Assembly (NCBI GenBank): GCA_028868855.1
Contig: JAGWTR010000003.1
Location: 310,001 to 374,000, forward strand
DNA from: Burkholderiales bacterium
GTDB taxonomy: Bacteria; Pseudomonadota; Gammaproteobacteria; Burkholderiales; Burkholderiaceae_C
Reading direction: 5' to 3'
DNA length: 64,000 nt
Shown: one piece after another, positions 40,843-64,000 of the stretch
Layout: each line of letters begins with the position of its first letter
Position numbering within the stretch: the stretch's first letter is position 1
Program-made: the position numbers and the translations under genes
The notes under the pieces: generated by a model
Database searches by the model: none
Seen by the model: only the letters and a program-made list of their open reading frames with translations
What the model was told of the DNA's origin: nothing

Positions 40843-40856
40843 GCGGTGATGCAACC

Positions 40857-41234: not shown

Positions 41235-41236
41235 CC

Positions 41237-43681: not shown

Positions 43682-43815
43682 CATGCTGCTTCGCAGTTCA
43701 CCCGCAACGGGTGTCACACGGTTTTTCGAAACTCCCAACCACTCGAGTCAGCAGTAGGGCTCGTGTGCACTCTAAGTATTCACTCTTTTCAATTTCACTC
43801 TCGGAGATCAAGCAA

Positions 43816-46073: not shown

Positions 46074-46133
46074 CCCTTCGAGGCTTCGCCCTCGAAGGGC
46101 TGCACTTCAAGGGCTGATGTCTGGCCTTTTTTT
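46074..46133 (+). terminator. Strong hairpin and T-run after the exported Cys-rich gene
   Basis: A perfect 10-bp stem CCCTTCGAGG/CCTCGAAGGG (loop CTTCGC) lies 15 bases past the stop. A second weak stem ends in a run of seven T (46127-46133). Confidence 0.7.
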
Positions 46134-46135
46134 GC

Positions 46136-46163
46136 ACAGTCCCCACCCGGGGACTGTTGTTTT
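46136..46163 (+). terminator. Factor-independent terminator only 14 bases ahead of tpsB
   Basis: A perfect 9-bp stem ACAGTCCCC/GGGGACTGT with loop ACCC is followed by TGTTTT. It is the classical form. The next gene starts at 46178, so there is almost no room for a promoter after it. Confidence 0.8.
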
Positions 46164-46177
46164 GTGTGATGTGCGAA

Positions 46178-47834: not shown

Positions 47835-50800
47835 ATGAATAAGCAAGTTCATCGTCTGGTGTTTGACCGTCGTCGTGGCATGCGGGTGCCAGCGGCCGAA
47901 CATGTGCGCTCGGCCGGCAAGGCCGCAGGCGGAGAACGCCGAGCCACGGCTCGGGTGGTCAGCCGATGGCTGGTCACGGCAAGCATGGCTGGGCCCCTGA
48001 CGTTGGGGCTGGCGGGCAGTGATGCGATGGCCCAGCAACGCACCATGAGTGGCAGTGCCACGCGATCGGTGTCGGCGCTGGTCAACATCCCGCAGACGCA
48101 ACGGTCTCTGCCCCAGCCCACTTTTCAGCCCAAAGGCATGCTCGATGCTGATCCGCGCAAGAACTACGGCAGCTTCTCTCTGAACTACGGCGCAGCGGGC
48201 TTGAACATCAACCAGCAAGACGACAAGGTCATCATCAACTGGGACAGCTTCAACGTGGGGCAAGGCTACACCGTTCGCTTTGTTCAGCCGCAAAGCACGT
48301 CGTCTGCCCTTAACAACATTTGGGATGCCAATCCCAGCGTCATCCTTGGCCAGATTCAGGCCAATGGCGAAGTGATTTTGCAGAACCACAATGGCGTCAT
48401 TTTTGGCCCAACGGCCCGCGTGGACACGGGTCGATTCGTGACCACGGCACTCAAGCTGGCCAACGACACCTACCTGCGGGGCATTCGCGCCAATGCGCGA
48501 GCAGGGGCTGCGACCTTTGGTGACGATGAGTCCTTGCCAACGGGCTTCATCACCGTCGAGCGTGGCGCCGAGATCAAGACCTTGGCCGGTGGCGACGTCA
48601 TGATGGTGGCCCCCAAGGTGTACAACGAAGGCAGCATTGAAACGCCGAAAGGCCAGACCATTCTGGCGGCGGGGCAGAAGGTGTATTTGTACAACGCCAC
48701 CGATGCCGCGCAACGCGGTCTGGTGGTGGCGGTGGATGCGTTTGCCGATGGTTCCAACGAGGTCAACACCGTTGAGCAAGCCGCCAAGGGCAATTACAAA
48801 ACCGTCCATGGGCAAACCGTCAGCGACGGCACGCCCGACACAACGGACGGACTGAGCACCAAGATCAATCAGATTGTGGCCGAGCAAGGCACCATCAACC
48901 TGGTGGGCATGACGATTCGCCAAAACGGTGTCTTGACGGCAACCACCGCCGTCAAGGGACAAAATGGCGCCATCTATCTGCAGGCGCAGAAGAACACGAC
49001 GCCCTATAACGAAAAGAACGTGGCGGCCGAGCTGGGGACGGTCGAGTTCGGCAAAGACAGCCAGACGTTGGTGACGCCGGTCGCGGACAGCAGTGCCAAA
49101 CAAAAAGATGCCGAGGTCTTCTACCGATCCAGAATTGAGGTGATCGGCAAGGACATCCGTGTTCGCTCAGGCGCCGAGATCACGGCGGTGTCGGGCAATG
49201 TCAGTTTGCGCGCTGGCGCCAACATGCAGACCGCCTCGGTCTTTGACAACACCAAGGAAACGGGGGCCGCCGATGGCAGTCACCTGGTGGTTGAAGGGGG
49301 CGCCACCATCAGTGCGGCAGGTCTGCGCGATGTGGCCGTGCCCATGAGCCGCAATCAACTCAGTGGCCGTCTGTTCGCCACTGAGTTGGCAGATTCGCCC
49401 GTGCAGCGCGGCGGTGTTCTGTACCGAAGCGACTTTTTGACCGATGCGCGCCGCCAGGTCGGCGTGGCCAATGTCACCGGGCAATACAAGCTGATTGAGC
49501 GCACGGCCCAGGAGTTGTCCACCCGCGGCGGCAATGTGCGCCTGTTGTCGCAAGGCGATTTGGTGATCGCCGATGACGCCCGGCTGGATGTGTCCGGGGG
49601 CAGCATCAAGTACGACGCGGGTCAAATCACATCGTCCCTGGTGCGTCGGGGCAATCAGCTCATTTCTCTGGAGAATGCCAAGGCTGGCGATAAATACGAC
49701 GAGTTGATCACCCCGACGGTGAACGCACTCACGCAGCAGGTGCCCAGTTTTGTCCAGGGCGCCGATGCGGGCCTGGCCTGGGTGGCGGGTGCCAACACCT
49801 ACCTGGGTGCGCATGTGGTCAAGGGCGATGTGGTGGTGGGCGCCAATCAGCGCACGGGGCAGGTCGTGGGCGCCTACGTCCCGGCATCGACCGGACTGGC
49901 CCTGTCTCCCATTGATCTACCGGACGAGTTGGGTGTGGCGGACATCCTGAAAACCCGACCCGAGCTGTACAGCTCGCTGCGTCCGCTGGGTGCCACGCTC
50001 ATGGTGGGCTACAAGTCCGCGCCGGTGGATCGCTCCTACAGTCAACTTACCCCCGAAATTGATCTCACCGGGTCGCGCCAAGCCCCTTTGTTGGCGATTC
50101 CTGAACTGGGCACCTCACAAGCCGATCAGTTCTTTGCGGCTTTGGGCACCACTCAGCTGATGGCGAGTGATGTGCAGTCAGCGGGCGTGGCGACCTTGTC
50201 ACTGAATGCACAAACCGTGCGCATGTCCAAAGGCGCTTCTCTGGACTTGGGTGCCTCCGGCCAGTTGGCCGTCGACGCCGAACACATTGACCTGGATGGG
50301 AAGCTGCGGGCGGCCGGGGGCAAGGTGCGACTGACGAGCTATACCGCCCCGGGTGACGCCAGCTTTGGCACGGTGGAGATCGGGCCAGATGCCCGCATTG
50401 ATTTGTCGGGCACACGCCGTGATGAGCGTGGGGCATTCTCTGCAACGGGCACGGGCAATGTGAATGGCGGCGATTTCAACATTGATGCCGACCATTCGGC
50501 CACCTTGGCCGAAGGCAGTGTGGTCGATGTGTCTGCCGGTGTGTGGCGAACCAGCGCTGGCAGCACCAGCACGGGCGCGGCAGGCAGCGTGACGCTGGGC
50601 GTCAACGGTACGCTGGATCGGAACAGCGAGCCGACAGGCCAATTGTTTTTGAAGGGCGCGCTGTCAGCCTTTGACTTCAAGTCGGGGGGCACCTTGTCCT
50701 TGAGTGGCCTGCACTCGCTGGTCATCGGCGGGATCGCGCAGGACGACTGGGGCCTGTCGCTGGGCGAGGCGTTTTTCTCGGACCATGGCTTTGGCACCTT

Positions 50801-53800
50801 CAAGCTGTCGGCCCTGGGTGACGTCAACGTCGCCGGCAGCCTGACGCCGGTTCTGCGCAACTTCGTCCTGAGTTCCAGCCGCATGGCGCTGGCGCCCGAG
50901 GCCCTGACCAGCACCGGGGTGCTGGATGCCAGCAGCCGCCAAGCCATTGCCCTGAACCTGACGGCCACGCTGCAGCCTAGGCAAGGGCTGTATGGCAGCT
51001 TGGAAACGGGCGGCAATGTCAAGGTGGCGCAGGGCGCCCGGGTGGATGTGGGTGCCGGCGGGCAGATTGGCTTGAAGGCTGGCGGCAACATCGAAGTGGC
51101 GGGCCAGTTGCTGGCCCATGGCGGGAGAATTTCGCTGGGGCTGTCGGGCGATCGTGGCGGTGGTGATGCAACCGGCACCGTGGATGCCGCCGGCTTCATC
51201 GATGGTCAGGAGGTTCGGTTGACCGCAAGCGGCGTGTTGGACGTGTCGGGGCTCGCCCTGTCGGCCACCACGGCAACGCTGGGTGGCGATCTGGTCCGAG
51301 GTCGTGTGCTGGGCGGCGGTACCGTCAACCTGAACGTCAATCCCGGTAAGCCATCGCGAGGCCGCGTGGTCACCGAAGTGGGATCGACGATTGATGTCAG
51401 CGGCGCTTCCGCGGACCTGGACCTGAGCAGAAGCCCAGGCGCCAAGGTGCACCTCAGCCAGGGTGCGGGTAGCGTCAGTGTGGCCTCGGCCGATGGCTTT
51501 TCGCTGATGGGCAACTTGGTGGCGGCGCGACCCGACGCGTCGGTGTCGGGCGGTCAATTCAGCGCGTCCATCAGCCGTGAGGGGGTGGCCGACTTCACGT
51601 CGAATTCCGACCAGGACAAGCAATACCAATCGGCCGCGCACCAGCTGACACTGCTGGGCAGCAGTGCCGAGGTGGCGCAGCACCCGCATGCCTACAACGA
51701 GGGCGTGCTGTCTGCCAATCAATTGCTGGACGCGGGCTTTGACCAAATTCAATTGCGGGCCGACGACCGCATCGTGCTGGGTCATGGCGTCAATCTGGTG
51801 TCTGACACCCAGAAGCCAGGATCGACGCAAGTGGCCTTGCGCTCGGTTCAGTTGACGGCGCCCGTGCTCCAAGCCACGGACGGCGGGCTGCACACCGTGC
51901 GGGCTGCTGCCGTGTCGCTGGGCGACCGGGATCTGACGCCGCAAAAAGCGTTGACCACTCCCATCGTCCCCTCCGCCATGTTGGGCGATGCCGGTTTGTC
52001 GGTGCAGGCCGGTTTGATCGAGGTCTTCGGCCACAGTGCCTTGCAAGGCTTTGGCCAGGCCAAAGGCGTGACGCTCGATGCCACGCTGGACACCCATGGG
52101 CAGCTCGACCGCCGACAAGATGGCGAGATCCGTTTCATCGGGCGCTCCTTTGCGCAAGACGCCGACGCGAAAAAACGCAGCGACCTGCAAGGCAGTCTGA
52201 GCTTTGGCGGTGATTTGACGCTGAAGGCAGGCCAGGTCTATGCATCGACCTTGTCGAACTTCACGGTGCAAGGTATGCCAGGCGCATCGTCCTTGACGGT
52301 GGCCATGCCGACAGGCGGCTCAAGCAGCGCAACACCCTTGTCTGCTCTGGCGCAATTGACCCTGCAGGCGCGTGATGTGGTCGTCAGTGGCGTGATCCGC
52401 CAGCCCTTTGGCAGCATCACCATCAACGGCGAGAACATGCCAAGGCTGGAGGCCGCCAGCGTGCTGTCCGTGTCGGGCGATGGCGTCACGGTGCCGGTGG
52501 GCACCACCATCAACTCGCGGCAATGGGTGTATGCCACCAATGGCACCGCCGATGGGGTGAGCCCTGCCGCCGATGACAGCGTGAAAACGCTCAACGGCCT
52601 GCCGGTGGCCAAGGGGATTTTGGTGAAAGGCGCAGGCCTGAGCATCAGCAATCAGACCCTGGTGCAGGCCCAGGCCGGGGGCGATCTACAAGCGTGGGAA
52701 TTCATCGCGGGCGTGGGGGGATCCACCGACACACTGAACCGCAGCAATGTGTTCGCCATCCTGCCTGGCTACCACTACGACTTCGCGCCGTTTGACACCG
52801 AAATCGCCGCCAGCACCAAGGCGGTGGGCACGCGCTTGTCCGCCGGAGACCAGGTTCAGATCAGCACCGGCAGCGCGGTGTTGGCCGCGGGCCTCTATAC
52901 CTTGCTGCCGGCCCGCTATGCCACCTTGCGTGGCGCTGTGCTGGTGTCGGCCACCAGCTTGAATGCGACCCAGCCCTTGTCCCAGGCCATCGCGCGTGAC
53001 GATGGCAGTGTGCTGGTGTCCGGCCATCTAACGGCCGTCGGCACCGACATCAACGGCGGCCATGACCCTCGCCAAGCCTTGATTCTGGAGCCTGAGTCCA
53101 CTTACCGCGCCAAATCGGCCTTGCAGGTGTTGTCGATCAATGACTACCTGGCCGACCAGGCCGCGCGCCATGCCACGGCCCTGCCATCGCGCCCCGGCGA
53201 TGCCGGTCGGGTGTCCTTGCAGGCGGACCAGTCCTTTGCGTGGGCGGCGCAGTTCAATCTGGCCGGCGCCGCCGGATTCCAGGCCGGTCAGTTTGACCTG
53301 TCCATGCCCGACATGGCATTGCTGGGGCAGGGCGAGTCCTCGACCAGTGGCACCACGGCCATCAGCGTGAAAGCGTTGAACGCCACCGGCGCACAAAGCA
53401 TCTTGCTCGGCGGCATCCGCACTGGCACGGCCGAGAACACGCACGTCACCACCCTGGCCAGTCAGGTCAGCCTCAGCGGGGAGCTTGCGGTGGGTGAGTT
53501 GATCGCGGTGGCGACGGACTCCGTGCACGTGAACCAGGGCACCTCGATCGTGTCCAACGGCGCAAGCAATGGCCTGTCCAACACCCTCACGGTCGATGGC
53601 ATGGGCGCTGCCCTGGTGGTGAGTGACCATGCCAATACCGACCTGCGCCGTGACCTGTCCACCGTGCCCAAGGGCGCTGTGCAGACGGGCACGCTGACGG
53701 TGGATGCGGGCGTGACGCTGCAAGGCGCGGCCGTTCAACTCGATGGAAGCAAACGGGTGAAGCTCGACGCTGACACCAAGCTGCTCACCTCGTCCATTGG

Positions 53801-56800
53801 AGTGGGGGCACCGCACATTGCCTTGGGCGGCCTCTCGGAGGATGCCAATGCCTTGTCCGTTGCGGGCCCATTGCTGGAGGCCTACAGCCAGGTCGAGCGG
53901 CTGCAATTGCGCAGCTACAGCAGCATTGATCTGTTGGGCAGCATGACCTTGGGCGCGCGTTCCGCCAACAATGCCCCGTTGATCCAACACCTGGTCCTGG
54001 ACGCGCCGGAGTTGCTGGGTCTGGGGCATGCGACCGACACCGCCACCGTGTTGGCTCAACACGTGGTGCTGCGCAATACCTCGGGCCTGAAGGCCAGCGG
54101 CGCGCAGCACGGCGATTCAAAACTCCGGGTGGTGGCTGAACCCGTCCTGAAAGATGGCGTCACTGGCGGCATCACCGTGGCGGGCGCCCAAGGCGAGAGT
54201 GCGCAAGGCCTGGCCTTTGCCTCGGCCACCCTGGCCACTGCGGGTGATGTGGTGTTCAGTGGGAAAGGGCTTCTGAATGCGCAAGGGGATGTCACCATTT
54301 CCAGCGCGCGTGTCACGGCGGACAAGACCGCACAGCATGGCGTGAACAGTCAAGGGGTGCTCACCATCGAGCAAGCCCTCAACCGCCACAGTTTTGGTGA
54401 ACAGCTTGGTGCGGGTGCCAGCCTGTCCCTGACCGGACAGCGTGTGGTGCAGGACGGCACCATTGATTTGCCATCGGGCTCTGTGAGCCTGACCGGCCTT
54501 GGCCAGACCGACCAGGCCGACACCGTCGTCTTCACCGAGCGTTCCAGCACCCAGGCCAAAGGCTGGGTGGCCAATGCGGGCAGTACCTGGTCTGCATCGG
54601 CCCCTGGTGGCCAGATCAAGGCCACGGCCTTGACGGGTGACGTGGTGGTGCGCGGCGTGCTGGATGTGTCGGCGCCGCAGCCAAACTCTGCGTCAGACAC
54701 CGCCAAGTCAGCGGGCGCCATAACCTTGACGGCCACCACGGGCGCTGTGCGTCTTGGCCAGAGCGCACGCCTGAAGGGCAGCGCGGCCACGGACACCTTG
54801 TCGGGCCGCCTGGTGGTGGATGCTCAAACCTTGGTCAACGAAACCGCACCCGGGGTCAATGGCCTGGCCGTGGCCAGCGCGGCTGCGGCACAAGGGACAC
54901 TGGACCGCCTGATCGGTGCCGCCAATGCGGGCGGCCTGCATGGTGAGGTCGATGTGCGTGTCCGCCAGGGTGATCAATCCCTGAACACCACCCTCAAGGC
55001 CGTGCGTGCCAGCCTGAGCGCCGATGCCGGCACACTGACCTTGCTGGGCGCCGCCACGATTGATGCCACGGCACCGCAAGGGGGGGTGGTGCAACTGGCC
55101 GCCGGTCAGGATCTGACGGTCAGTGCGGGCGCCCAGATTCACGCGGACTCCAGTCGGGCGGGCGCCAATGGCGGCGACGTCCTGTTGGCGTCCACCTCAG
55201 GGCGGGTGAAGCTCGAAGAAGGCGCGACCATCACGGCGACCGGCGACGACGCCCTGGATGGTCGCGTGGTCATCAGCGCCCAGCGCGAGGTGTTGACCGC
55301 ATTGGCCAACGCCCATGCGGCCGATGCGACGGCGGCCCCCGTCAAGACCGCCCGCATTGTGGCCGGCGAAATCGATGTCGTGGGCAACCGCGTGTACCAG
55401 GGTGACACGGTGGCCGAAGGCAAGTCAGGGGCGGTGCGCACCGAAACCGGCACCACCACCGAGCTGTCGCCGGTCAGCCAATACGCGGGTCTGGCCGACA
55501 TCGCCAGCCACGCAGAAGACTTCATGGGCACGCAGGCCAAGGTGCTGTCGGCCCTGGGTCTGACGGACCAGGCAAACCTGCGCGCAGGGGTTGAGATTCG
55601 GTCGGCTGCCGATTTCACACTCAGCAGTGACTGGTCTCTGGCGGATGCGCTTCACCCCGGCGCCCAGCCCTTGTTCCTGACCATTCGGGCGGGCAGGAAT
55701 CTGAACGTCAAGGGCAGCCTGAGCGATGGCTTTGCGACGGCCGACCGGGCGGCATCGATCAACCCTGGTGAGGGCGCTTCTTACCGCCTGGTGGCGGGTG
55801 CTGACACCACGGCGGCCAACGTGCTCAAGACCGATGCCGCCTCAACCGGCAGCATCACCATCGAGGCCGGCAAGCTGGTGCGAACCACCTCGGGGTCCAT
55901 TGAGATGGCCGCGGCGCAAGACATCGTCCTGAACACGAACTACGCGACCAACCCGAGCGCACCGGTTCAAGGGGTGGCCTATGTGGCCGGGCGTCTGCCT
56001 GATTTGCCGGCGGGCGTCACCTTTGACGTGGCCCCATCGAGCGCCGCTGACTTCACCGGCCATGGCGGGCGATTGGAGGCGTCTGCTGGGCGCGACATCG
56101 TCTCGCCCGGAGCCTCTCAATTGTTCGGCAGTTGGTTCAACCATGCGGGCTTCACCGATCTGGATTCCGGCCAGCAAGTGCCGGTGGCGTGGTGGGCCAC
56201 CTTCTCGGCGTTCAAGCAAGGCTTTGGCTCATTTGGCGGCGGCAACATCAGCGCCGTGGCCGGACGCGACATCAGCAACCTGGGCGTCGTGGCGCCCACT
56301 TCGGCGCGCACCCTGACGACGACGGTCACGGATGAGGCCGGCAACTTCGTGGCGCAGCACAATGACCTGGCCGTCGACAACGGTGGTGACGTGACCGTCC
56401 GGGCGGGGCGGGATGTCCGTGGTGGCCACTATTTCCTGGGCCGGGGCAACGGTGCCATCCAGGCGGGTGGCGCCATCGCCCTTGGCGACAGCCTGGACAA
56501 AGCCAAGTTCCAGCCCCTGGGCGCGATACTGGGCCAAATGGACGGCAACTGGTCCATGCAGGCCGTGGCCGATGTCAATCTGGCGATGGCCTTCAACCCG
56601 ACCATGTATGTCAACGCCACGCGATCCAAGAGCGACGGTGGCCTCTACCTCACCTATGGTGAAGACGCTGCACTGGCCCTTTCCAGCGTATGGGGTGACA
56701 TCAATTGGTGGGGCAACAGCCGATCCACCAAAGGCACAGCCACCACGAACACTTACTTGGTCCAAATGGCAAAGCTGGCGCCCAAGGATGAGCAGTTGAG

Positions 56801-58847
56801 CTTGCCGGGTAGCAGCCAGCAATTCATCAACAGTTCGACCGGCTTGAGCGCGCCGGTCGTGCACCTGGCGGCCATGCAGGGTGATGTCTCCTTTGATTTG
56901 CCCACCGGTAGCGCCCTGACGTTGACCCCTTCCGCCAAGGGGGACTTAAGTGTCTATGCCGGCCAGAACGTGTTGCTGAAATCGGCAGGGACTTCCAGCC
57001 TGAACCTTGGCGACGGGTTGTTCTCGGACAGTTACGCCGTCTCCGCCCCGAAGAAGGAAATCGGCGTCGGAGGAACGGCTGATTTGAAGGCCCTGAACAA
57101 TCACGTCACTCGATCGGCCGGTGCCAGCCTGCTGCATGCGCCGGACACCAACCCTGTGCGAATCTATGCAGGCGGTGACCTGAGCGCTTCTTCCAGCGGC
57201 GTGAACGGATCGGTCACATTGACCGTCTCCAAACCCGCAGACATCGTGGCCGCTGGGGACATTCGCAATTTGTCGTTCATCGGCCAGAATTTTGTGGACA
57301 CCGATGTGACCCGCATTGCCGCGGGCGGCGATTTTGTCGGGGCGACAAATCCCCCCAATGCGGTGTCCTCCAAGCGCGGCGCCGGCTTGATCAGTGTGAG
57401 CGGTCCTGGCGAGCTCCAGGTCGAAGCGGGCAGGCAGTTGGACCTGAGCACCTCGGCGGGCCTTGAAAGCGTGGGGAACCAGTACAACGCCGCCTTGCCG
57501 GATCAGAGCGCCAAGATCAGTGTCGCAGCGGGCATGGCCAAGTCGGTCAATGTGCCTGAGTTTGCCCGCCTGTACCTGGCCCATGACGCGGCGGCGCAAG
57601 CAAAGCTGGTCAGCTATGTCAAACACACCTTGATGTTGAGTGACGAGCTGTTGGCCGACTACCCTGCCAGCAACGGACCTGAGCAGGCCGCGGTCTACGC
57701 CCAGGCCTTGGCCTACTACCAAACGTTGGCGCCCCAGCATCAGCTCGCCTTGGCCGACCAGGTGATCTCTGATGTCTTTGTGGGCACCTACTTGTCCGGC
57801 CAGGGGGCTTATGCCGGGGCATGGGCTGACCTGGCCAACCGGGCACAGGTGTCGGTGTCCGACCATGCGTCCTTGCTGTTCAAGCGCTTCAGAGACGACG
57901 TCCTGATGGCGGAAATCAAACGACTGGGCAGTCAGGCCGTCGCCATTGCCGACAGCACCGATGCGGCAGAAAGCGCCAGGCGAAAGGCGCAACGTCAGGC
58001 CCTGTGGGATCAGGTCCGCACGGCGGTCAGCCTGGCAGGACTTGGGCAAGGATTTGCCTTCCGTGGCGACATCGATCTGGCGGGCAGCATGGTCTACACC
58101 AAGGCGCCAGGCAACTTGAACTCAGGCGGCATCGACCTGTTCGCGCCCGGTGGCCAGGTCGTGGTGGGTCTCAGCACCCTGACGGCCATCGACAAACTGC
58201 AGGCCGACAGCCGTGGCCTGGTCACCATGCAGGGCGGCAGCATCCGCTCGGTGTCTGATGGCGACTTCCAAGTCAACTCGCAAAAAGCCTTTGTGGTGGG
58301 CGAGGGCGATTTGATGGTCTATTCGGCCAACGGCAGCGTGGACTCGGGCCGCGGCTCCAACACGGACGTGACGGTGCCGAAAGCCATGCGCACTCCGGAT
58401 CCCCTGACCGGCATTGTGAAAGTGGTGGTGCCGGCGGCGACAACGGGCAGCGGCATTGGCCGATTGAACGCGGGCGATACCGTGTCCAAGGGCAGCGTGT
58501 TGCTGGCGGCGCCCAATGGCGAAATTCGCGCCTTGGATGCCTTCATCCGTAATGACTCCGGCGGTGACATCGCCGTGGCCGGGGTGGTCAAAGGCGGCGA
58601 CAACATCAAGGGCAATGTCGCTGGTCTGGCGCCTGCGCCCGCAGTGACGGTCGCGCTCAACGTGAACTCGGCCTTGCCAACCGATGCCAGCGCAGGGGCA
58701 CAAGCGGCGGTTGATGGGGCTCAGGGCAAGAAAGCCAAAGACCCCAGCTCCATTTTGACGGTTGACCTTCTGGGCATGGGCGATGACGAATCCGCTCCCG
58801 CCGCCAAGCCCTGCCCGAAGGAGCAAAAAGACGACTGCCAACGGTGA
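47835..58847 (+). CDS. Giant filamentous-hemagglutinin-type TpsA adhesin
   Basis: A 3,670-residue exoprotein. The N-terminus MNKQVHRLVFDRRRGMRV is an extended signal peptide region (ESPR); cleavage is expected after AMA (A66). A TPS secretion domain follows (about 67-330), with NPSVILGQIQANG and NHNGVIFG at 184-191 where most family members have NPNG. A long beta-helix body has many short degenerate motifs. Near the C-terminus (about 3150-3590) a DUF3739-like region includes VAAGMAKSVNVPEFARLYL (start VAAGMAKSVNV). There is no LPXTG or PEP-CTERM tail. GAGGAG lies about 8 bases ahead of the ATG. It should be surface-exposed or released, used for adhesion or biofilm, but could have another role. 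Confidence 0.9.
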   Translation: MNKQVHRLVFDRRRGMRVPAAEHVRSAGKAAGGERRATARVVSRWLVTASMAGPLTLGLAGSDAMAQQRTMSGSATRSVSALVNIPQTQRSLPQPTFQPKGMLDADPRKNYGSFSLNYGAAGLNINQQDDKVIINWDSFNVGQGYTVRFVQPQSTSSALNNIWDANPSVILGQIQANGEVILQNHNGVIFGPTARVDTGRFVTTALKLANDTYLRGIRANARAGAATFGDDESLPTGFITVERGAEIKTLAGGDVMMVAPKVYNEGSIETPKGQTILAAGQKVYLYNATDAAQRGLVVAVDAFADGSNEVNTVEQAAKGNYKTVHGQTVSDGTPDTTDGLSTKINQIVAEQGTINLVGMTIRQNGVLTATTAVKGQNGAIYLQAQKNTTPYNEKNVAAELGTVEFGKDSQTLVTPVADSSAKQKDAEVFYRSRIEVIGKDIRVRSGAEITAVSGNVSLRAGANMQTASVFDNTKETGAADGSHLVVEGGATISAAGLRDVAVPMSRNQLSGRLFATELADSPVQRGGVLYRSDFLTDARRQVGVANVTGQYKLIERTAQELSTRGGNVRLLSQGDLVIADDARLDVSGGSIKYDAGQITSSLVRRGNQLISLENAKAGDKYDELITPTVNALTQQVPSFVQGADAGLAWVAGANTYLGAHVVKGDVVVGANQRTGQVVGAYVPASTGLALSPIDLPDELGVADILKTRPELYSSLRPLGATLMVGYKSAPVDRSYSQLTPEIDLTGSRQAPLLAIPELGTSQADQFFAALGTTQLMASDVQSAGVATLSLNAQTVRMSKGASLDLGASGQLAVDAEHIDLDGKLRAAGGKVRLTSYTAPGDASFGTVEIGPDARIDLSGTRRDERGAFSATGTGNVNGGDFNIDADHSATLAEGSVVDVSAGVWRTSAGSTSTGAAGSVTLGVNGTLDRNSEPTGQLFLKGALSAFDFKSGGTLSLSGLHSLVIGGIAQDDWGLSLGEAFFSDHGFGTFKLSALGDVNVAGSLTPVLRNFVLSSSRMALAPEALTSTGVLDASSRQAIALNLTATLQPRQGLYGSLETGGNVKVAQGARVDVGAGGQIGLKAGGNIEVAGQLLAHGGRISLGLSGDRGGGDATGTVDAAGFIDGQEVRLTASGVLDVSGLALSATTATLGGDLVRGRVLGGGTVNLNVNPGKPSRGRVVTEVGSTIDVSGASADLDLSRSPGAKVHLSQGAGSVSVASADGFSLMGNLVAARPDASVSGGQFSASISREGVADFTSNSDQDKQYQSAAHQLTLLGSSAEVAQHPHAYNEGVLSANQLLDAGFDQIQLRADDRIVLGHGVNLVSDTQKPGSTQVALRSVQLTAPVLQATDGGLHTVRAAAVSLGDRDLTPQKALTTPIVPSAMLGDAGLSVQAGLIEVFGHSALQGFGQAKGVTLDATLDTHGQLDRRQDGEIRFIGRSFAQDADAKKRSDLQGSLSFGGDLTLKAGQVYASTLSNFTVQGMPGASSLTVAMPTGGSSSATPLSALAQLTLQARDVVVSGVIRQPFGSITINGENMPRLEAASVLSVSGDGVTVPVGTTINSRQWVYATNGTADGVSPAADDSVKTLNGLPVAKGILVKGAGLSISNQTLVQAQAGGDLQAWEFIAGVGGSTDTLNRSNVFAILPGYHYDFAPFDTEIAASTKAVGTRLSAGDQVQISTGSAVLAAGLYTLLPARYATLRGAVLVSATSLNATQPLSQAIARDDGSVLVSGHLTAVGTDINGGHDPRQALILEPESTYRAKSALQVLSINDYLADQAARHATALPSRPGDAGRVSLQADQSFAWAAQFNLAGAAGFQAGQFDLSMPDMALLGQGESSTSGTTAISVKALNATGAQSILLGGIRTGTAENTHVTTLASQVSLSGELAVGELIAVATDSVHVNQGTSIVSNGASNGLSNTLTVDGMGAALVVSDHANTDLRRDLSTVPKGAVQTGTLTVDAGVTLQGAAVQLDGSKRVKLDADTKLLTSSIGVGAPHIALGGLSEDANALSVAGPLLEAYSQVERLQLRSYSSIDLLGSMTLGARSANNAPLIQHLVLDAPELLGLGHATDTATVLAQHVVLRNTSGLKASGAQHGDSKLRVVAEPVLKDGVTGGITVAGAQGESAQGLAFASATLATAGDVVFSGKGLLNAQGDVTISSARVTADKTAQHGVNSQGVLTIEQALNRHSFGEQLGAGASLSLTGQRVVQDGTIDLPSGSVSLTGLGQTDQADTVVFTERSSTQAKGWVANAGSTWSASAPGGQIKATALTGDVVVRGVLDVSAPQPNSASDTAKSAGAITLTATTGAVRLGQSARLKGSAATDTLSGRLVVDAQTLVNETAPGVNGLAVASAAAAQGTLDRLIGAANAGGLHGEVDVRVRQGDQSLNTTLKAVRASLSADAGTLTLLGAATIDATAPQGGVVQLAAGQDLTVSAGAQIHADSSRAGANGGDVLLASTSGRVKLEEGATITATGDDALDGRVVISAQREVLTALANAHAADATAAPVKTARIVAGEIDVVGNRVYQGDTVAEGKSGAVRTETGTTTELSPVSQYAGLADIASHAEDFMGTQAKVLSALGLTDQANLRAGVEIRSAADFTLSSDWSLADALHPGAQPLFLTIRAGRNLNVKGSLSDGFATADRAASINPGEGASYRLVAGADTTAANVLKTDAASTGSITIEAGKLVRTTSGSIEMAAAQDIVLNTNYATNPSAPVQGVAYVAGRLPDLPAGVTFDVAPSSAADFTGHGGRLEASAGRDIVSPGASQLFGSWFNHAGFTDLDSGQQVPVAWWATFSAFKQGFGSFGGGNISAVAGRDISNLGVVAPTSARTLTTTVTDEAGNFVAQHNDLAVDNGGDVTVRAGRDVRGGHYFLGRGNGAIQAGGAIALGDSLDKAKFQPLGAILGQMDGNWSMQAVADVNLAMAFNPTMYVNATRSKSDGGLYLTYGEDAALALSSVWGDINWWGNSRSTKGTATTNTYLVQMAKLAPKDEQLSLPGSSQQFINSSTGLSAPVVHLAAMQGDVSFDLPTGSALTLTPSAKGDLSVYAGQNVLLKSAGTSSLNLGDGLFSDSYAVSAPKKEIGVGGTADLKALNNHVTRSAGASLLHAPDTNPVRIYAGGDLSASSSGVNGSVTLTVSKPADIVAAGDIRNLSFIGQNFVDTDVTRIAAGGDFVGATNPPNAVSSKRGAGLISVSGPGELQVEAGRQLDLSTSAGLESVGNQYNAALPDQSAKISVAAGMAKSVNVPEFARLYLAHDAAAQAKLVSYVKHTLMLSDELLADYPASNGPEQAAVYAQALAYYQTLAPQHQLALADQVISDVFVGTYLSGQGAYAGAWADLANRAQVSVSDHASLLFKRFRDDVLMAEIKRLGSQAVAIADSTDAAESARRKAQRQALWDQVRTAVSLAGLGQGFAFRGDIDLAGSMVYTKAPGNLNSGGIDLFAPGGQVVVGLSTLTAIDKLQADSRGLVTMQGGSIRSVSDGDFQVNSQKAFVVGEGDLMVYSANGSVDSGRGSNTDVTVPKAMRTPDPLTGIVKVVVPAATTGSGIGRLNAGDTVSKGSVLLAAPNGEIRALDAFIRNDSGGDIAVAGVVKGGDNIKGNVAGLAPAPAVTVALNVNSALPTDASAGAQAAVDGAQGKKAKDPSSILTVDLLGMGDDESAPAAKPCPKEQKDDCQR

Positions 58848-59018
58848 TCGGGTGCACCGCATGAAAGCCCCACCCTCATCCAAGGGGGAGGGGTGACAAA
58901 TGACAGATTCGTGACGGCTCATGAGCCGAGTGAGTAGGCCATTCGGCCTAGTGGGCGACCCGATGCCGACACATGCGCTTTTGACAATGGCGTTTTGTGT
59001 AGCGATGGACCAAGTCCC
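58848..59018. other. 171-bp gap with palindromes between tpsA and the motor genes
   Basis: It contains a G/C-rich hairpin (58871-58895), a perfect palindrome CGGCTCATGAGCCG (58915-58928) and TAGGCC-ATTC-GGCCTA (58935-58950). TTGACA at 58981-58986 is a possible -35, but no good -10 lies at the right distance. A separate promoter for the motor genes is possible. Confidence 0.5.
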
Positions 59019-60725
59019 ATGAATGCAATGAAGTCTTTGATGATGGGTGCCGCCCTGTGCTGTGGGCTGGCGTCGACCTCGGCCAAGGCCTGGTGGAATG
59101 GGGACTGGACGCATCGAGCCAAGATTTCCTTGAACACCACGGCCCAGGGCATTGAAACCAAAGAAGCCCTGTCCGGCACGGTGGTGCCGGTGCGTTTGCA
59201 CTCCGGCAACTTTGACTTCCTGTCGGCCAAACCCGATGGCTCCGACCTGCGCGTGGTCGCCGCCGACGACAAGACCCCGCTCAAGTTCTGGGTGGAGCGC
59301 TTTGACGGAGGCAATGAACTGGCCGTGGTTTGGGTGCAGGTGCCCAGCGTGGCCCCGGGCACCGACAAGAACCTGATCTACGTTTATGCCGGCAACGAGA
59401 AGGCAGCCGCCGAAGCCAGCACGCCAGCCTTGTATGACGGCTCGACCGTGCTCGCCATGGCCTTCGCTGAAAAGCAGGGCGAGGCGGTGGATGCAACGGG
59501 TCAGATCAAGACCAGCGAAGCGGTCAATCGTGACGCCAATGGATTGATCGGCGCGGCGGCCAAGCTTGATGGCCAGCGCGCGTTGATCGTTCCTGCCAAC
59601 GCCAAACTCAAGGCGCCTGGCTCGGGTCCCTACAGCGTCAGTCTGTGGGTCAAGCCGGAGGTGGTGGCCGGGGAGCTGTTCAAGCAAGGCCCGCTGGCCT
59701 TGTCCATCAATGGCGGCAAGTTGGCCCTTGTCTATGGCGGTGCGCAAGCCGTGGGTGGCGATCTGCCCGCGTCGGCGTGGGCGCATGTGGCGCTCACGCT
59801 GGGCGCCGGCAAGTTGACCTTGTACGTCAATGGCGCGCAGGCCGCGCAAGCTGACTTGCCCACCACGGCGCCTGCGATTGAAGGCGATGTGCAGTTGGGC
59901 AAAGGCATGAGCGGCTTGATTGACCAGTTGGAAGTGGCCAGCACCGTGCGCAGCGCAGACTGGGTGAAGTTTGCCCACGCCGCGCAAAGCGCCGATGCCA
60001 AGTTGGTGGCGGCCGTTGGCCAGACCGAAGCGAGCGCCAAGGAAGGCGACGGCGGCAGCCCTGGATACTTCAGCATCCTGGTGGGCAACCTGACGGTCGA
60101 CGCCTGGGTGGTGATCGGCATCCTGGCCGTGATGTTCCTCATCTCCGCATGGGTGATGTACGCCAAGGCGATGTTGGTGACGCGCGCCGACAAACACAAC
60201 CGCATGTTCCTGCAGAAGTTCCGCGAGGTGCGTGACGTGATGATGGTGCCACCCAAAGGGCTGCAACATTCTTCATTGCAGCGTCTCTATGCGGCGGGCC
60301 TGCACGAGTTGACCAAACGTGATGTGGGCACGGCAGGGGCCAAGCCGCTGTCGGGCGCGTCCATCGATGCCGTCAAGGCCGCCATTGATGCCGACCTGGT
60401 GCGCGAAAACCAGGACCTCAACTCGCAGATCGTGCTGCTGACCATCGCCATTTCGGGCGGCCCCTTCCTGGGTCTGCTGGGGACGGTGGTGGGCGTGATG
60501 ATCACCTTCGCCGCCATTGCGGCGGCGGGCGACGTCAACGTCAACGCGATCGCCCCAGGGATTGCGGCGGCGCTGCTGGCCACGGTGGCGGGCTTGGCGG
60601 TGGCCATCCCTGCGCTGTTTGGCTACAACTACCTGGCCGCTCGAATCAAGAACATTTCCTCGGACATGCAAATCTTCATCGACGAGTTCGTGACGCGCGT
60701 GGCCGAAACCCACGGCGCCCGCTGA
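59019..60725 (+). CDS. DUF2341-LamG-like domain fused to a MotA/TolQ/ExbB proton channel
   Basis: A 568-residue fusion. Signal peptide (about 1-24), then a DUF2341-type domain (25-130, WWNGDWTHRAKISLN with LIYVYAGN), a LamG/concanavalin-like beta domain (about 175-320, YSVSLWVKPE and LTLYVNGAQAA), a linker, and a TolQ/ExbB-type channel with three membrane segments (363-382, 471-500, 513-537; GPFLGLLGTVVGVMITF is the conserved stretch). ExbB/TolQ proteins form the stator with ExbD/TolR and use proton flow. The N-terminal region would be in the periplasm and could bind polysaccharide or protein. Two exbD genes follow directly. The ATG at 59019 opens the signal peptide. Confidence 0.88.
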   Translation: MNAMKSLMMGAALCCGLASTSAKAWWNGDWTHRAKISLNTTAQGIETKEALSGTVVPVRLHSGNFDFLSAKPDGSDLRVVAADDKTPLKFWVERFDGGNELAVVWVQVPSVAPGTDKNLIYVYAGNEKAAAEASTPALYDGSTVLAMAFAEKQGEAVDATGQIKTSEAVNRDANGLIGAAAKLDGQRALIVPANAKLKAPGSGPYSVSLWVKPEVVAGELFKQGPLALSINGGKLALVYGGAQAVGGDLPASAWAHVALTLGAGKLTLYVNGAQAAQADLPTTAPAIEGDVQLGKGMSGLIDQLEVASTVRSADWVKFAHAAQSADAKLVAAVGQTEASAKEGDGGSPGYFSILVGNLTVDAWVVIGILAVMFLISAWVMYAKAMLVTRADKHNRMFLQKFREVRDVMMVPPKGLQHSSLQRLYAAGLHELTKRDVGTAGAKPLSGASIDAVKAAIDADLVRENQDLNSQIVLLTIAISGGPFLGLLGTVVGVMITFAAIAAAGDVNVNAIAPGIAAALLATVAGLAVAIPALFGYNYLAARIKNISSDMQIFIDEFVTRVAETHGAR

Positions 60726-60737
60726 TCGGACCAGATC

Positions 60738-61145
60738 ATGTCGGGCGACATCAAGGAAGACAACCAGCCGTATGACGAGATCAACATCACTCCGATGTTG
60801 GACTTGGCCTACGTGCTGCTGGTCATCTTCATCATCATGACGACCGCCTCGGTGCAAGGAGTCAAGGTGCAGTCCCCGATCACGCAGGCGGCCAACAACC
60901 TGGCAAAGCCGCAGACCAAGGGCATCACCATCACGGCCGAGGGGCAGGTCTACCTGGACGCCTACCCCGTCAGCATGGACCAACTCAAGTCCACCCTGGC
61001 GCAGTACAAGGCGGCCAACCCCAATCTGCCGGTGGTCCTGAAGGCCGATGCGGCCACGCAGTACGACAAGGTGATGGAGGTGCTGGAAATTGCCAAGCGA
61101 CTGGACATCACCGAAATCGGCCTGGCCACCAAGCGTGTGCAGTAA
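60738..61145 (+). CDS. exbD: ExbD/TolR-type stator protein 1
   Basis: A 135-residue bitopic protein: cytoplasmic head, one membrane segment with the conserved Asp (NITPMLDLAYVLLVIFIIM) that takes part in proton flow, and a periplasmic ExbD domain (GQVYLDAYPVSMDQLKSTL). It follows the fusion channel gene by 12 bases, so they probably act as one complex. A second exbD is 12 bases further on. Confidence 0.93.
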   Translation: MSGDIKEDNQPYDEINITPMLDLAYVLLVIFIIMTTASVQGVKVQSPITQAANNLAKPQTKGITITAEGQVYLDAYPVSMDQLKSTLAQYKAANPNLPVVLKADAATQYDKVMEVLEIAKRLDITEIGLATKRVQ

Positions 61146-61157
61146 GGAGCGCTGGCG

Positions 61158-61559
61158 ATGAAAGTTCAAAACGAGACCAAGCCCTACGACACCATCAACG
61201 TGACACCGATGCTGGACCTGGCCTATGTGCTGCTGGTGGTGTTCATCTTGATGACGACCGCCTCGGTGCAGGGCTTGCACGTCAGCATGCCCAAGCCCAG
61301 CAACAAGCCCAGCACTGAAAAGCACGAGCTGAAAATCATCCAGGTGATGCCCGATGGCGCCTTGATGATCAACGGGGTCAGTGTGAACCTGGCGGACCTG
61401 GAGTCGCAATTGCAGCAGGCCAAGTCGCGTGATTCCAAGATGAGCGTGGCCATCAAGGGTGATGCGCGTGCGCAGTACGCCAAGGTGGTGGCCATCATTG
61501 ACCTGTGCAACAAGATCGAAGTGCCGATGGGCCTGATCACCTCCCGCATCGGGGCTTGA
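61158..61559 (+). CDS. exbD: ExbD/TolR-type stator protein 2
   Basis: A 133-residue ExbD-like protein with the same Asp-bearing segment (NVTPMLDLAYVLLVVFILM) and a periplasmic domain (GALMINGVSVNLADLESQL). It is clearly related to the previous gene but diverged, mostly in the periplasmic part. Two ExbD paralogues side by side occur with some TonB systems, where they may form a heterodimer. Confidence 0.93.
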   Translation: MKVQNETKPYDTINVTPMLDLAYVLLVVFILMTTASVQGLHVSMPKPSNKPSTEKHELKIIQVMPDGALMINGVSVNLADLESQLQQAKSRDSKMSVAIKGDARAQYAKVVAIIDLCNKIEVPMGLITSRIGA

Positions 61560-61562
61560 GCC

Positions 61563-62222
61563 ATGAACAGCAGCACTGATCAAGCGTGGATTCGCTGGGC
61601 GATGGGCGCCATGGCGCTGGCGACGATCGGAGGCTTGATCTATTGGGCGGCCACCTCCTTCAAAGGCACGAGCGGCCGGCACAAAACGCAGACGGTCAAG
61701 ATCGCGGTCTTGCCGGACACCCCGCCACCGCCGCCGCCGAAAGAAGAGAAAAAGCCTGAGCCACCCAAGCAGGAAGACAAGCCACAGCCTCAGCAGCAGC
61801 CCAAGCCTCAGGAAGCGCCGCCTGCGCCTCAGCAACTCAAGATGGACGGGCCGGCCGGTGATGCGCCAAGTGGCTTCGCCGCCGGCCAGGTCACGCAAGA
61901 GTACAAGGGCGGCGATGTCGGTACCGGCTCGGGCGGCAACGGCCTGCAATTTGCGCTGTTCACCACGCAAGTGCAACGACACCTGCAAAGCGCCCTGGCA
62001 AGGAACCGTGACATCAAGCTGGGTGACTACCGCGTCCGCGTGAGTGTGTGGATCGCTCCCTCCGGCGAATTCAAGCGGGTGGAGTTGATGTCGCCCTCCG
62101 GTGACGAGAAGGTCGACGCGGCCCTGCGTCAGGCCTTGGCGCAACTGCCGCCCATGAACGACGTGCCTGCCAACTTGCCGCAACCGATCCGTTTGCGAAT
62201 CACCAACCGGATGACCGGTTGA
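61563..62222 (+). CDS. TonB-like energy-transducing protein
   Basis: A 219-residue protein: a membrane segment (about residues 12-31, WAMGAMALATIGGLIYWAA), a Pro/Lys/Glu/Gln-rich periplasmic spacer that includes six consecutive Pro and PPKEEKKPEPPKQ, then a TonB-family C-terminal domain (YRVRVSVWIAPSGEFKRVEL). TonB couples the ExbBD motor to an outer-membrane protein; the next gene encodes a predicted porin, the obvious candidate. It lies 3 bases after exbD2. Confidence 0.88.
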   Translation: MNSSTDQAWIRWAMGAMALATIGGLIYWAATSFKGTSGRHKTQTVKIAVLPDTPPPPPPKEEKKPEPPKQEDKPQPQQQPKPQEAPPAPQQLKMDGPAGDAPSGFAAGQVTQEYKGGDVGTGSGGNGLQFALFTTQVQRHLQSALARNRDIKLGDYRVRVSVWIAPSGEFKRVELMSPSGDEKVDAALRQALAQLPPMNDVPANLPQPIRLRITNRMTG

Positions 62223-62238
62223 TTTCTGAAGTGACTTT

Positions 62239-63948
62239 ATGAACTCCTTGAAAAAATCCTGGTGGCCGACCTTGACGGCCTTGAGCCTGGCCGTGGTCGG
62301 TACGCTGGCCCACGCCGATGAACGCGAGTCCCTGGAAGCCATCCGTCAAACCACCATCGGCTTGATCGATGCCCTGGTGGACAAAGGCGTGTTGTCCCGT
62401 GAAGCGGCCGACGGCATGCTCAAACAGGCGCAACAACGCGCGGCTGAGGTCAGCACTTCGTCGGTCGCCAGTCCTGCCTCGGCTGGCAAGCCGGTGTTGC
62501 GCGTGCCCTATGTGCCCGAGTCCATGAAGGCGCAGATCCGCAATGAAGTCAAGGAAGAGGTGTTGACGCAGGCTCGTGCCGAACGATGGGGGGTACCCAA
62601 CGCCACGCCGTCCTGGGTGGATCGCATCAAGATTGACGGCGACTTCCGCTTCCGCTTCCAGTCCGATCGTCCGGGCAAAGACAATACATTGCCGGCCGAC
62701 TATCTGGCCGCCGAAGTGAACAACAACAATGGCTTGTCCCGCGCGCCGGATTTTGCGTCTTATGCCGCAACGCAAGTCAACAGCGTGATCCCAACAGCGT
62801 CGACGGTGGACAACCGCGATCGTGAGCGGATTCGCTTGCGCCTGGGCCTGTCCGCCAAAGTGGCTGACGAAGTGGGGGTGGGGGTGAGATTGGCGACCGG
62901 CAGCGCGACGGATCGCGTCTCGACCAATCAGACGCTTGGCCAGAACTTCAACAAGTACCAGTTGTTTGTGGACCGTGCCTTCGTGCGCCTTGATCCCGCT
63001 GAATGGTTGACGGTGCAGGCTGGACGCATCCCCAATCCATGGTTCAGCACCGACATGGTGTGGAGCGAGAACCTGAATTTCGATGGTTTGGCCGCGACCA
63101 CGCGGTGGGCGCCGCAGGGCAGCGACTTGACGCCCTTTGCCACCGTGGGGTGGTTCCCCTTGCGCGAGCAAACGCCACCCAGCCGCTCATCGCGCTGGCT
63201 GGTTGGCGCGCAATTGGGCACCGGCTGGGAGGTGGCCGCGCGAACCAAGCTCAAGCTGGGCATGGCCTACTACAGCTACAAAAATCTTGAAGGGCGTGTG
63301 GACCAGAACTATGACACCGGCCTCAACAGCAGCAACCAGCCAGTGGTGGTCCCCAGGGTCAACTATGGTGAGTCTGAATACCCCACAGGGCTGCGCCAAA
63401 AAGGCAACACGGTCTTCGAAACCAATCCGCTGTTCTCGCCGGACATCGCCCCGGTTTGGGGCTTGGCCTACGCGTTCCGGCCGCTGGTCCTGACCGCGTC
63501 GGCTGAGCTGACCCATTTCAGCCCGTACAGCCTGCTGCTGTCCGCCGAGTACGTCAAGAACACGGCCTTTGATGCCGCGAACTTTCACAGCCGCGCAGGA
63601 TCGGCTTACGACAATGTGAACCCCGCAGGCAAGTCCACGGGCTACCACCTCAAGTTGGCATTCGGTGCGGCCGAGGTGCGTGAAGCCGGTCAATGGCAGT
63701 TGTCCACCAGCTACCGCCACATCGGCTCCGATGCCGTGCTCGACGCCTTCACCGACAGTGATCTCGGGCTGGGGGGCACCAATCTGCAGGGCTACACCCT
63801 GGGCGGCGTTTATGGCCTGTACCGCAACACCAACCTGGGCATGCGCTACCTTTCTGCCAAAACCATTGACACCCCTTTGAACGCGGCCTACCCCAATGCC
63901 AGCTACAAAGTCAACTCCTTGCAGGTGGATCTCAATGTTCGCTTCTGA
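62239..63948 (+). CDS. Putative outer-membrane porin
   Basis: A 569-residue protein with a signal peptide (LTALSLAVVGTLAHA), an N-terminal helical stretch (ERESLEAIRQTTIGLIDALV and IRNEVKEEVLTQARAE), a WVDRIKIDGDFRFRFQ start of a beta-barrel and a C-terminal end NSLQVDLNVRF with a terminal Phe typical of outer-membrane proteins. It resembles proteins annotated as putative porins in betaproteobacteria that lie next to TonB-ExbBD genes. A plug domain or TonB box is not evident. It follows the tonB-like gene by 16 bases. Confidence 0.82.
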   Translation: MNSLKKSWWPTLTALSLAVVGTLAHADERESLEAIRQTTIGLIDALVDKGVLSREAADGMLKQAQQRAAEVSTSSVASPASAGKPVLRVPYVPESMKAQIRNEVKEEVLTQARAERWGVPNATPSWVDRIKIDGDFRFRFQSDRPGKDNTLPADYLAAEVNNNNGLSRAPDFASYAATQVNSVIPTASTVDNRDRERIRLRLGLSAKVADEVGVGVRLATGSATDRVSTNQTLGQNFNKYQLFVDRAFVRLDPAEWLTVQAGRIPNPWFSTDMVWSENLNFDGLAATTRWAPQGSDLTPFATVGWFPLREQTPPSRSSRWLVGAQLGTGWEVAARTKLKLGMAYYSYKNLEGRVDQNYDTGLNSSNQPVVVPRVNYGESEYPTGLRQKGNTVFETNPLFSPDIAPVWGLAYAFRPLVLTASAELTHFSPYSLLLSAEYVKNTAFDAANFHSRAGSAYDNVNPAGKSTGYHLKLAFGAAEVREAGQWQLSTSYRHIGSDAVLDAFTDSDLGLGGTNLQGYTLGGVYGLYRNTNLGMRYLSAKTIDTPLNAAYPNASYKVNSLQVDLNVRF

Positions 63949-64000
63949 TCAACGCCTTCGCGTGTGGACACGCGCTGTGCTGGTCCTGGCCTGCGTGGCC
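63935..64000 (+). CDS. 5' end of an exported protein (cut by the window edge)
   Basis: An ATG at 63935 overlaps the porin 3' end by 14 bases. The 22 codons visible encode a short polar head followed by a hydrophobic stretch (WTRAVLVLACVA), as in a signal peptide or lipoprotein signal. The overlap suggests that it belongs to the same transcript as the motor genes. Too little is visible to name it. Confidence 0.55.
   Translation, partial: MFASDQRLRVWTRAVLVLACVA

What the first reader, a model, noticed from the sequence alone, without database searches (positions are those of the whole stretch)
47835..64000. Candidate PMF-energised surface system around a giant TpsA adhesin
Seen: tpsB and a 3,670-aa tpsA are followed on the same strand by a DUF2341/LamG-TolQ fusion, two ExbDs, a TonB-like protein, a predicted porin and an exported protein start, mostly with 3-16 base spacing. 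Known: TPS export itself needs no energy source. Inference: the motor could energise adhesin display, release or retraction, or drive uptake of a ligand bound by the adhesin, through the porin. I know of no named system with this exact set, though similar neighbourhoods may exist.
Basis: partly seen in the sequence, partly recalled or inferred. Interest (0 to 1): 0.82.

Follow-up and report, generated by a model that had tools for sequence, protein, structure and literature searches.

The report
Motor-linked giant adhesin locus, Pdt-type
A bacterial gene block that pairs a giant surface protein with its own proton-driven motor, an outer-membrane porin and a phosphate-binding-like protein; it matches a gene set known, but not understood, in Pseudomonas aeruginosa.

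Summary
In detail: tpsB, a 3,670-aa DUF3739 TpsA, a DUF2341/LamG-TolQ fusion, two ExbDs, a TonB-like protein, a Porin_5 porin and an exported coiled-coil protein lie on one strand. Of 150 order genomes, 17 have full-length Porin_5; 16 of these carry DUF3739 on the same contig and strand. Of 398 phylum genomes, the same 14 carry both, and DUF2341 occurs in 13 of these only.

The set is not unnamed. P. aeruginosa PA7 has it in the order published for PAO1 pdtA-phdA-pdtB-exbB2-exbD2-tonB4-PA0696-PA0697, part of a phosphate-starvation regulon whose TonB genes a 2020 paper calls uncharacterised.

New here: a PstS-like exported protein upstream of tpsB in 14 of 14 readable beta-type loci (window 44776-46059); a conserved strand in the porin N-terminus, absent from 8 stand-alone relatives; a conserved strand at the TpsA C-terminus, absent from 11 other TpsAs.

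Best reading: a TonB-type motor dedicated to a TPS/porin complex for phosphate-linked capture and uptake (about 0.4). Rival: the motor acts on TpsA display or release (about 0.3). No experiment was run.

The parts
44776..46059 (+). PstS-like exported substrate-binding-type protein, subfamily found with this block
   Evidence: Family profile matches PDB phosphate-binding proteins (best E 3.7e-5); PF12849 in 6 of 13 family members, best 2.3e-7, but the window's own copy alone has no Pfam match and no credible PDB match; homologue next to tpsB in 13 of 13 other beta-type loci with flank
46166..47797 (+). tpsB, two-partner secretion outer-membrane transporter
   Evidence: POTRA_2 and ShlB; first possible start TTG 46157
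47835..58847 (+). tpsA, 3,670-aa exoprotein with extended signal peptide, TPS domain and DUF3739
   Evidence: Pfam
58749..58781 (+). TpsA C-terminal conserved strand (SILTVDLLGMG)
   Evidence: position; relaxed motif in 50 of 52 DUF3739 TpsAs, 0 of 11 other TpsAs
58995..60725 (+). DUF2341 + LamG domains fused to a TolQ/ExbB channel subunit
   Evidence: Pfam; PDB TolQ 9e-19 and a match of the LamG part to an extracellular arabinanase 2.6e-5
60738..61145 (+). ExbD/TolR 1, transmembrane Asp retained (INITPMLDLAYVLL)
61158..61559 (+). ExbD/TolR 2, transmembrane Asp retained (INVTPMLDLAYVLL)
61563..62222 (+). TonB-like energy transducer (TonB_2 C-terminal domain, Pro-rich linker by eye)
62239..63948 (+). 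Porin_5 outer-membrane porin
   Evidence: PF16930 1.9e-153
62497..62520 (+). porin N-terminal conserved strand (LRVPYVPE)
   Evidence: position; conservation
63896..64000 (+). start of exported coiled-coil protein (PA0697 position), runs past the window end
   Evidence: L003:897-1589; homologues beside the porin

Best explanation
This is the betaproteobacterial form of the Pdt-type module known from P. aeruginosa (PdtA/PdtB with ExbB2-ExbD2-TonB4 and PA0696). Shown: gene content, order, conservation and the retained ExbD aspartates. Inferred: the TolQ/ExbD channel uses the proton-motive force and passes the energy through the TonB-like rod to the outer membrane, where its client is the complex of TpsB, the Porin_5 barrel and a surface-held TpsA. 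The most likely role is capture and uptake of a phosphate-containing ligand under phosphate limitation. The giant TpsA and the PstS-like protein bind it outside or in the periplasm, and TonB, docking on the conserved N-terminal strand of the porin, opens or drives the porin. This would work like HxuA with a TonB-dependent receptor, with a porin in the receptor's place.
For: Co-occurrence: order sample 16 shared of 17 and 17 (hypergeometric 2e-19), phylum sample 14 of 14 (4e-26) (kinship not corrected). Same order in P. aeruginosa PA7. Around the porin of 80 named loci, where flank allows: TpsB 76 of 76, TolQ fusion 77 of 77, ExbD 78 of 78, TonB 78 of 78, coiled coil 79 of 79. Published PhoB and sigma-VreI control, with phdA, pdtB, exbB2D2, tonB4 and PA0696-PA0701 from one promoter, and a co-regulated secreted phosphatase. 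PstS-like protein beside tpsB. Porin strand in linked porins (24 of 26 by the strict pattern, the other two as variants) and in 0 of 8 stand-alone relatives. Pairwise distances of TolQ, ExbD, TpsB and porin correlate, Spearman 0.70-0.87, as expected of co-inheritance but also of shared ancestry.
Against: No experiment was possible. No TonB-dependent receptor with plug was found among the block proteins scanned. The porin could be a passive pore. PHO-box-like matches in the window equal chance (4 against 3.95 expected). The PstS-like profile matched none of the Pseudomonas-type or alphaproteobacterial-type loci held, including G511, a genome of the window's own family, and not G138 as a whole genome. 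The window's own PstS-like copy alone has no Pfam match and only a chance-level PDB match. Published transposon mutants in tpsA, tpsB, PA0695 and PA0696 were as virulent to zebrafish embryos as the wild type.
Confidence: 0.4

Rival explanations
1. Energised display: the motor acts on the TPS pair itself. The TpsA C-terminal tail stays in the periplasm, its terminal strand docks on the TonB-like rod (or on TpsB), and motor force holds, tensions, releases or retracts the fibre. The porin and coiled-coil protein are structural partners.
For: TpsB is the invariant neighbour of the motor (76 of 76). Two genomes have three DUF3739 matches and one full-length Porin_5 each (G342, G511); 5 of these 6 TpsA tails were read and all 5 keep the terminal strand. 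Strand in 50 of 52 DUF3739 TpsAs, 0 of 11 other TpsAs from the same genomes. Precedent: the SiiAB proton channel, not needed for secretion of the giant adhesin SiiE but needed for invasion (PMC12607715 passages).
Against: Type V secretion is reported to need no external energy (PMC5422565 passages). It does not by itself explain a porin, PhoB control or the PstS-like protein. The motif patterns were written after seeing the sequences.
Confidence: 0.3
2. Envelope bracing or surface sensing: a Tol-like motor with a periplasmic lectin-like domain that tethers or tensions the envelope around a giant surface fibre, or reports contact.
For: TolQ-like channel subunit (NCBIfam tolQ 131 bits); LamG and DUF2341 domains; long exported coiled-coil partner.
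Against: The tolQ score is below its cut-off of 221; none of the six proteins scanned is a TolB or Pal; no regulator lies inside the block.
Confidence: 0.12
3. Plain neighbours: an ordinary adhesin operon next to an unrelated TonB/porin operon.
For: 147-171 base gap between tpsA and tolQ; co-transcription in this organism untested; TpsA C-terminus within 9.5 kb in only 26 of 65 named loci.
Against: Co-occurrence and co-location in the order and phylum samples and constancy of TpsB with the motor in 80 named loci; published shared promoter for pdtB, motor and PA0696 in P. aeruginosa.
Confidence: 0.03

Closest known systems
P. aeruginosa pdtA-phdA-pdtB-exbB2-exbD2-tonB4-PA0696-PA0697 (PUMA3 / sigma-VreI regulon)
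   Same: TpsA, TpsB, DUF2341-TolQ, ExbD, TonB, Porin_5 and coiled-coil homologues in conserved order (PA7 locus L156; PAO1 gene list from paper passages).
   Different: The window has tpsA between tpsB and the motor, two ExbDs, a PstS-like gene upstream, and no FecR-type (VreR) gene at the locus (the one FecR match in the genome is on another contig).
HxuCBA haem uptake of Haemophilus influenzae
   Same: TPS surface protein coupled to TonB-powered uptake (PMC5422565 passages).
   Different: HxuC is a TonB-dependent transporter; here a Porin_5 barrel, and a motor is encoded in the block.
SiiAB-SiiE of Salmonella SPI-4
   Same: Mot/Exb/Tol-type proton channel dedicated to a giant adhesin (PMC12607715 passages).
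   Different: SiiE uses a type I secretion system; no TonB or porin is mentioned in those passages.
DUF2341-bearing generic ion transporters
   Same: DUF2341 on the channel subunit is noted in PMC12505986 (two passages).
   Different: Those passages give no partner or function; here LamG is present as well and the neighbours are defined.

Membership tests
Pdt-type module (PdtAB-ExbB2D2-TonB4-PA0696) | TpsA related to PdtA, with DUF3739 | tested here: met
   DUF3739 1.4e-14 in the window TpsA; window TpsA 3357-3656, which spans DUF3739, matches the PA7 TpsA end at 6e-15
Pdt-type module (PdtAB-ExbB2D2-TonB4-PA0696) | TpsB, DUF2341-TolQ, ExbD, TonB and Porin_5 homologous to the P. aeruginosa genes, in the same order | tested here: met
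   tblastn to PA7 locus L156: 2e-83, 2e-98, 2e-31, 5e-7, 4e-83; tpsA position differs
Pdt-type module (PdtAB-ExbB2D2-TonB4-PA0696) | phosphate (PhoB) control | tested here: inconclusive
   PHO-box-like matches at chance level
PUMA3 cell-surface signalling system | VreA-VreI-VreR at the locus | tested here: not met
   the one FecR match of the genome is at C1:547741, not at this locus; VreA and VreI were not searched separately
TonB-dependent transport system | plug-barrel receptor with TonB box encoded with the motor | tested here: not met
   Porin_5 only; no Plug domain in the block proteins scanned
Tol-Pal system | TolQ equivalog score | tested here: not met
   131.4 bits against a cut-off of 221
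Two-partner secretion (type Vb) | TpsB with POTRA/ShlB and TpsA with TPS domain | tested here: met
PstS / PBP_like_2 phosphate-binding family (44776-46059) | profile match to phosphate-binding proteins and conserved anion-loop residues | tested here: inconclusive
   Family profile hits PDB phosphate-binding proteins from 3.7e-5 and PF12849 in 6 of 13 members, but the window copy alone has no Pfam match and only 2a9f at 0.18 in the PDB; invariant R...SG, GS and D columns resemble PstS contacts as recalled

The most novel reading that the evidence does not exclude
An energised two-partner system: the TonB-like rod grips the conserved C-terminal strand of a giant TpsA retained in the periplasm, and the proton-driven motor pulls or releases the fibre, with several TpsAs in one cell sharing one motor. 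TPS would then have a powered branch, against the textbook view that type Vb needs no energy source.
Probability: 0.2. Interest if true: 0.85.

Novelty: new variant of a known kind. Interest (0 to 1): 0.55.

Why it matters
A gene set induced by phosphate starvation in P. aeruginosa, with its TonB and porin genes still unassigned in the 2020 paper, gets a defined core, a wider distribution, a PstS-like partner in the betaproteobacterial form and two candidate docking strands that can be tested directly. It bears on whether TonB-type motors can power porins or giant adhesins rather than only plug-barrel receptors.

Tried and rejected
PHO-box search: 4 matches against 3.95 expected, so no claim; one lies in the tpsA-tolQ gap on the minus strand.

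C-terminal cysteine hook on TpsA (as in CdrA, recalled): rejected; a cysteine pair near the end is seen in the window, L053, L167 and L169 copies but not in the other tails printed.

Two ExbDs as the signature: rejected, 4 of 27 loci.

Structure prediction of the PstS-like protein: switched off. Profile searches against PDB sequences and Pfam were used instead. The PDB sequence search with the porin profile found nothing credible (best E 0.66).

hhalign of the first PstS-like alignment (8 rows) against a PBP_like_2 protein beside tpsA in G439 was weak (probability 14, E 0.002), and the profile did not match that protein, so it is another subfamily.

Caveats on counts. Order and phylum samples share some genomes, and kinship is not corrected. 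Rows dropped: L016 and L061 porin ORFs were read in a wrong frame and left out of the strand count; L016 in another frame has VRVQYVP, L061 gave no match when re-read. L161:8193-19901 was cut by the locus end and left out of the TpsA tail count. Among the 11 control TpsAs, the ORFs of L183 and L185 look like wrong frames by eye, so a strict count is 0 of 9. With the first, narrower pattern the TpsA strand count is 44 of 52 (shuffle mean 0.12); the relaxed pattern gives 50 of 52 (shuffle mean 0.39). Both patterns were written after viewing the sequences, and 26 of the tails come from the 80 named loci, mostly Pseudomonas. A first porin alignment ignored the strand of the match and was redone; a first TpsA tail search found 8 and was redone by iteration.

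Exceptions to co-occurrence: G082 (porin only, at a contig start), G135 (DUF3739 only, 398 bases from a contig end), G052 (TolQ fusion only, on a 3.5-kb contig), G422 (no DUF2341 found; porin on a 3.8-kb contig). These were not resolved. In the phylum sample, DUF3739 and porin are on one contig in 12 of 14 genomes (not in G275 and G422; in G407 on opposite strands).
Full report
Observation. tpsB starts at 46157/46166, before the stated interval. The spacers from tolQ to the porin are 12, 12, 3 and 16 bases (coordinates). The gap between tpsA and tolQ is 147 bases to the TTG start and 171 to the first ATG, with no terminator-like site reported there. The exported protein at the end is a 230-aa ORF, coiled-coil by eye, that continues past the window (L003:897-1589).

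Is the block real? In 150 genomes drawn from the order, full-length Porin_5 (E < 1e-100) occurs in 17, DUF3739 in 17 and a long DUF2341-TolQ match in 17; 16 genomes have all three, with porin and DUF3739 on one contig and strand. In 398 genomes of the phylum, full-length Porin_5 is in 14, DUF3739 in exactly the same 14, and DUF2341 in 13 of these and in no other genome of the sample. The hypergeometric values are 2e-19 and 4e-26, without correction for kinship. The four exceptions (G082, G135, G052, G422) lie at contig ends or on short contigs and were not resolved. Weaker Porin_5 matches (E 7e-4 to 2e-34) lie in genomes without a DUF3739 match.

Named relatives. Where the flank is long enough, TpsB is present in 76 of 76, DUF2341-TolQ in 77 of 77, ExbD in 78 of 78, TonB in 78 of 78, and homologues of the PA7 coiled-coil ORF and of the next two ORFs in 79 of 79 each; the TpsA C-terminus lies within 9.5 kb in only 26 of 65. 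So the tight unit is TpsB plus motor plus porin, with TpsA looser. In P. aeruginosa PA7 (L156) window proteins match, in order, the TpsA end, TpsB, DUF2341-TolQ, ExbD, TonB, Porin_5 and the coiled coil. The other ORFs there I named PhdA, YbjN, isomerase and LysR from their place in the published PAO1 order (PA0690-PA0701); they were not scanned against families, and PAO1 itself was not read.

What is in print. Passages of PMC2729926 list tpsA, tpsB, exbB2, exbD2 and PA0696-PA0699 as regulated by VreI and say that TPS, ExbBD and PA0696 homologues accompany PUMA3 in the other bacteria it names. Passages of PMC7035377 call exbB2-exbD2-tonB4 a still uncharacterised putative TonB system and PA0696 a putative outer-membrane porin. 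[quoted passage not shown] Passages of PMC9769906 list PdtA and PA0696 among the proteins most enriched under phosphate limitation. In PMC2729926, mutants in tpsA, tpsB, PA0695 and PA0696 were as virulent to zebrafish embryos as the wild type. Searches showed, by titles and starts of abstracts, no paper on what this motor does; several of these lists were capped (for example 25 of 735), most subscription papers are not in the library, and Faure et al. 2014 could not be read.

A missed component. The ORF at 44776-46059 alone has no Pfam match and only a chance-level PDB match. A profile of this protein and its neighbours' homologues finds a relative directly upstream of tpsB, same strand, gaps -52 to 542 bases, in all 13 other beta-type loci that hold that flank. 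It matched none of the other loci held then, which include the Pseudomonas-type loci, the alphaproteobacterial-type ones and G511 of the window's own family. The 13-row profile has five PDB matches at E up to 1, from 3.7e-5 to 0.02; three are annotated as phosphate transport or phosphate-binding proteins, the others as a periplasmic substrate-binding protein and Sll0540. An earlier 8-row profile gave 7.5e-5 for the same top entry, and its first five matches are all annotated as phosphate transport or phosphate-binding proteins. Six of 13 members match PBP_like_2, best 2.3e-7. Invariant columns include G29, G91-S92, D155, R261 and S265-G266, which resemble the anion contacts of PstS as I recall them. 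Across 150 order genomes the profile hits 17, of which 16 carry at least one marker of the system. Thirteen of those helped to build the profile; of the 4 others (G016, G052, G118, G137) 3 carry a marker, although G016 had been a row of the earlier profile, and in G052 and G118 the hit is on another contig. In G439 a PBP_like_2 protein of another subfamily lies just upstream of tpsA, next to a type II secretion gene. The window has a type II secretion-like cluster at about 32.5-41.7 kb (secretin and pseudopilin motifs by Pfam; GspF and GspG by similarity; others by eye), and P. aeruginosa has hxc genes in the same regulon.

Two candidate docking strands. (1) Linked porins carry a conserved N-terminal segment, V-R-V-P-Y-V-P-E in consensus: 24 of 26 by a strict pattern, the other two (window LRVPYVPE, L057 RHVTYVPE) as variants; 0 of 8 stand-alone Porin_5-like proteins have it. 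(2) DUF3739 TpsAs have, near the C-terminus, a strand of the type T-V-x-V-L-G-F-G: 50 of 52 in the last 120 residues by the relaxed pattern, against a shuffle mean of 0.39, and 0 of 11 TpsAs without DUF3739 from the same genomes, two of which have doubtful frames. In five loci (L028, L043, L045, L047, L051) the protein ends within five residues of the matched core. Both could be partners of the TonB-like domain or of TpsB; this is inference. Twenty-six of the tails come from the named loci, mostly Pseudomonas, and the patterns were chosen after the fact.

Motor. Both window ExbDs keep the transmembrane aspartate in the motif INITPMLDLAYVLL / INVTPMLDLAYVLL. The fusion matches TolQ structures over its C-terminal 200 residues and, before that, a LamG-type stretch of an arabinanase. 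The genome has one FecR match, on another contig, so the VreR-type regulator is not at this locus.

How it most likely works. The motor is dedicated to the outer-membrane side of this block. Phosphate control in P. aeruginosa, the secreted phosphatase in the same regulon, the PstS-like partner here and the porin together favour a capture-and-uptake role (0.4). The invariant TpsB linkage, three DUF3739 matches to one full porin in G342 and G511 with the same strand in the 5 of 6 tails read, and the SiiAB-SiiE precedent favour direct action on TpsA (0.3). Envelope bracing or sensing takes 0.12 and chance neighbours 0.03; the rest is unassigned. The two leading models can be told apart by the deletions listed under next steps.

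Verdict. A conserved system whose gene set has been published in P. aeruginosa and whose function is open; the window holds a betaproteobacterial variant.

Noticed in passing
window 32481-41671: Type II secretion-like cluster (pseudopilins, GspF, GspE-like frame by eye, GspD 38034-40364) just upstream of the block; type II genes also beside the block in G037 (L035), G082 (L055) and G439 (L172).
   Followed up: partly
window 46074-46157: Two hairpin-like stretches between the PstS-like gene and tpsB, the first by eye, the second scored as terminator-like (46136-46157); the two genes may be separate transcripts.
   Followed up: no
window 43702-44694: PEP-CTERM protein (PF07589, 1.7e-5) upstream, while the region after the window (L003) looks by eye like an exopolysaccharide/exosortase-type cluster, mostly on the minus strand.
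   Followed up: no
L161:5682-6392, L163:9714-10562 (G342): VreA-like proteins there combine an STN domain with a TonB_2 C-terminal domain.
   Followed up: no
L171:94-3210 (G439): A full TonB-dependent receptor with STN, plus a FecR gene, near the porin; a possible client of the motor in that lineage.
   Followed up: no
G028:C4:176244-177497, G037:C31:30149-31519, G137:C18:4362-5645: Copies of the PstS-like subfamily away from the block, G137 in a genome without a detected block.
   Followed up: no
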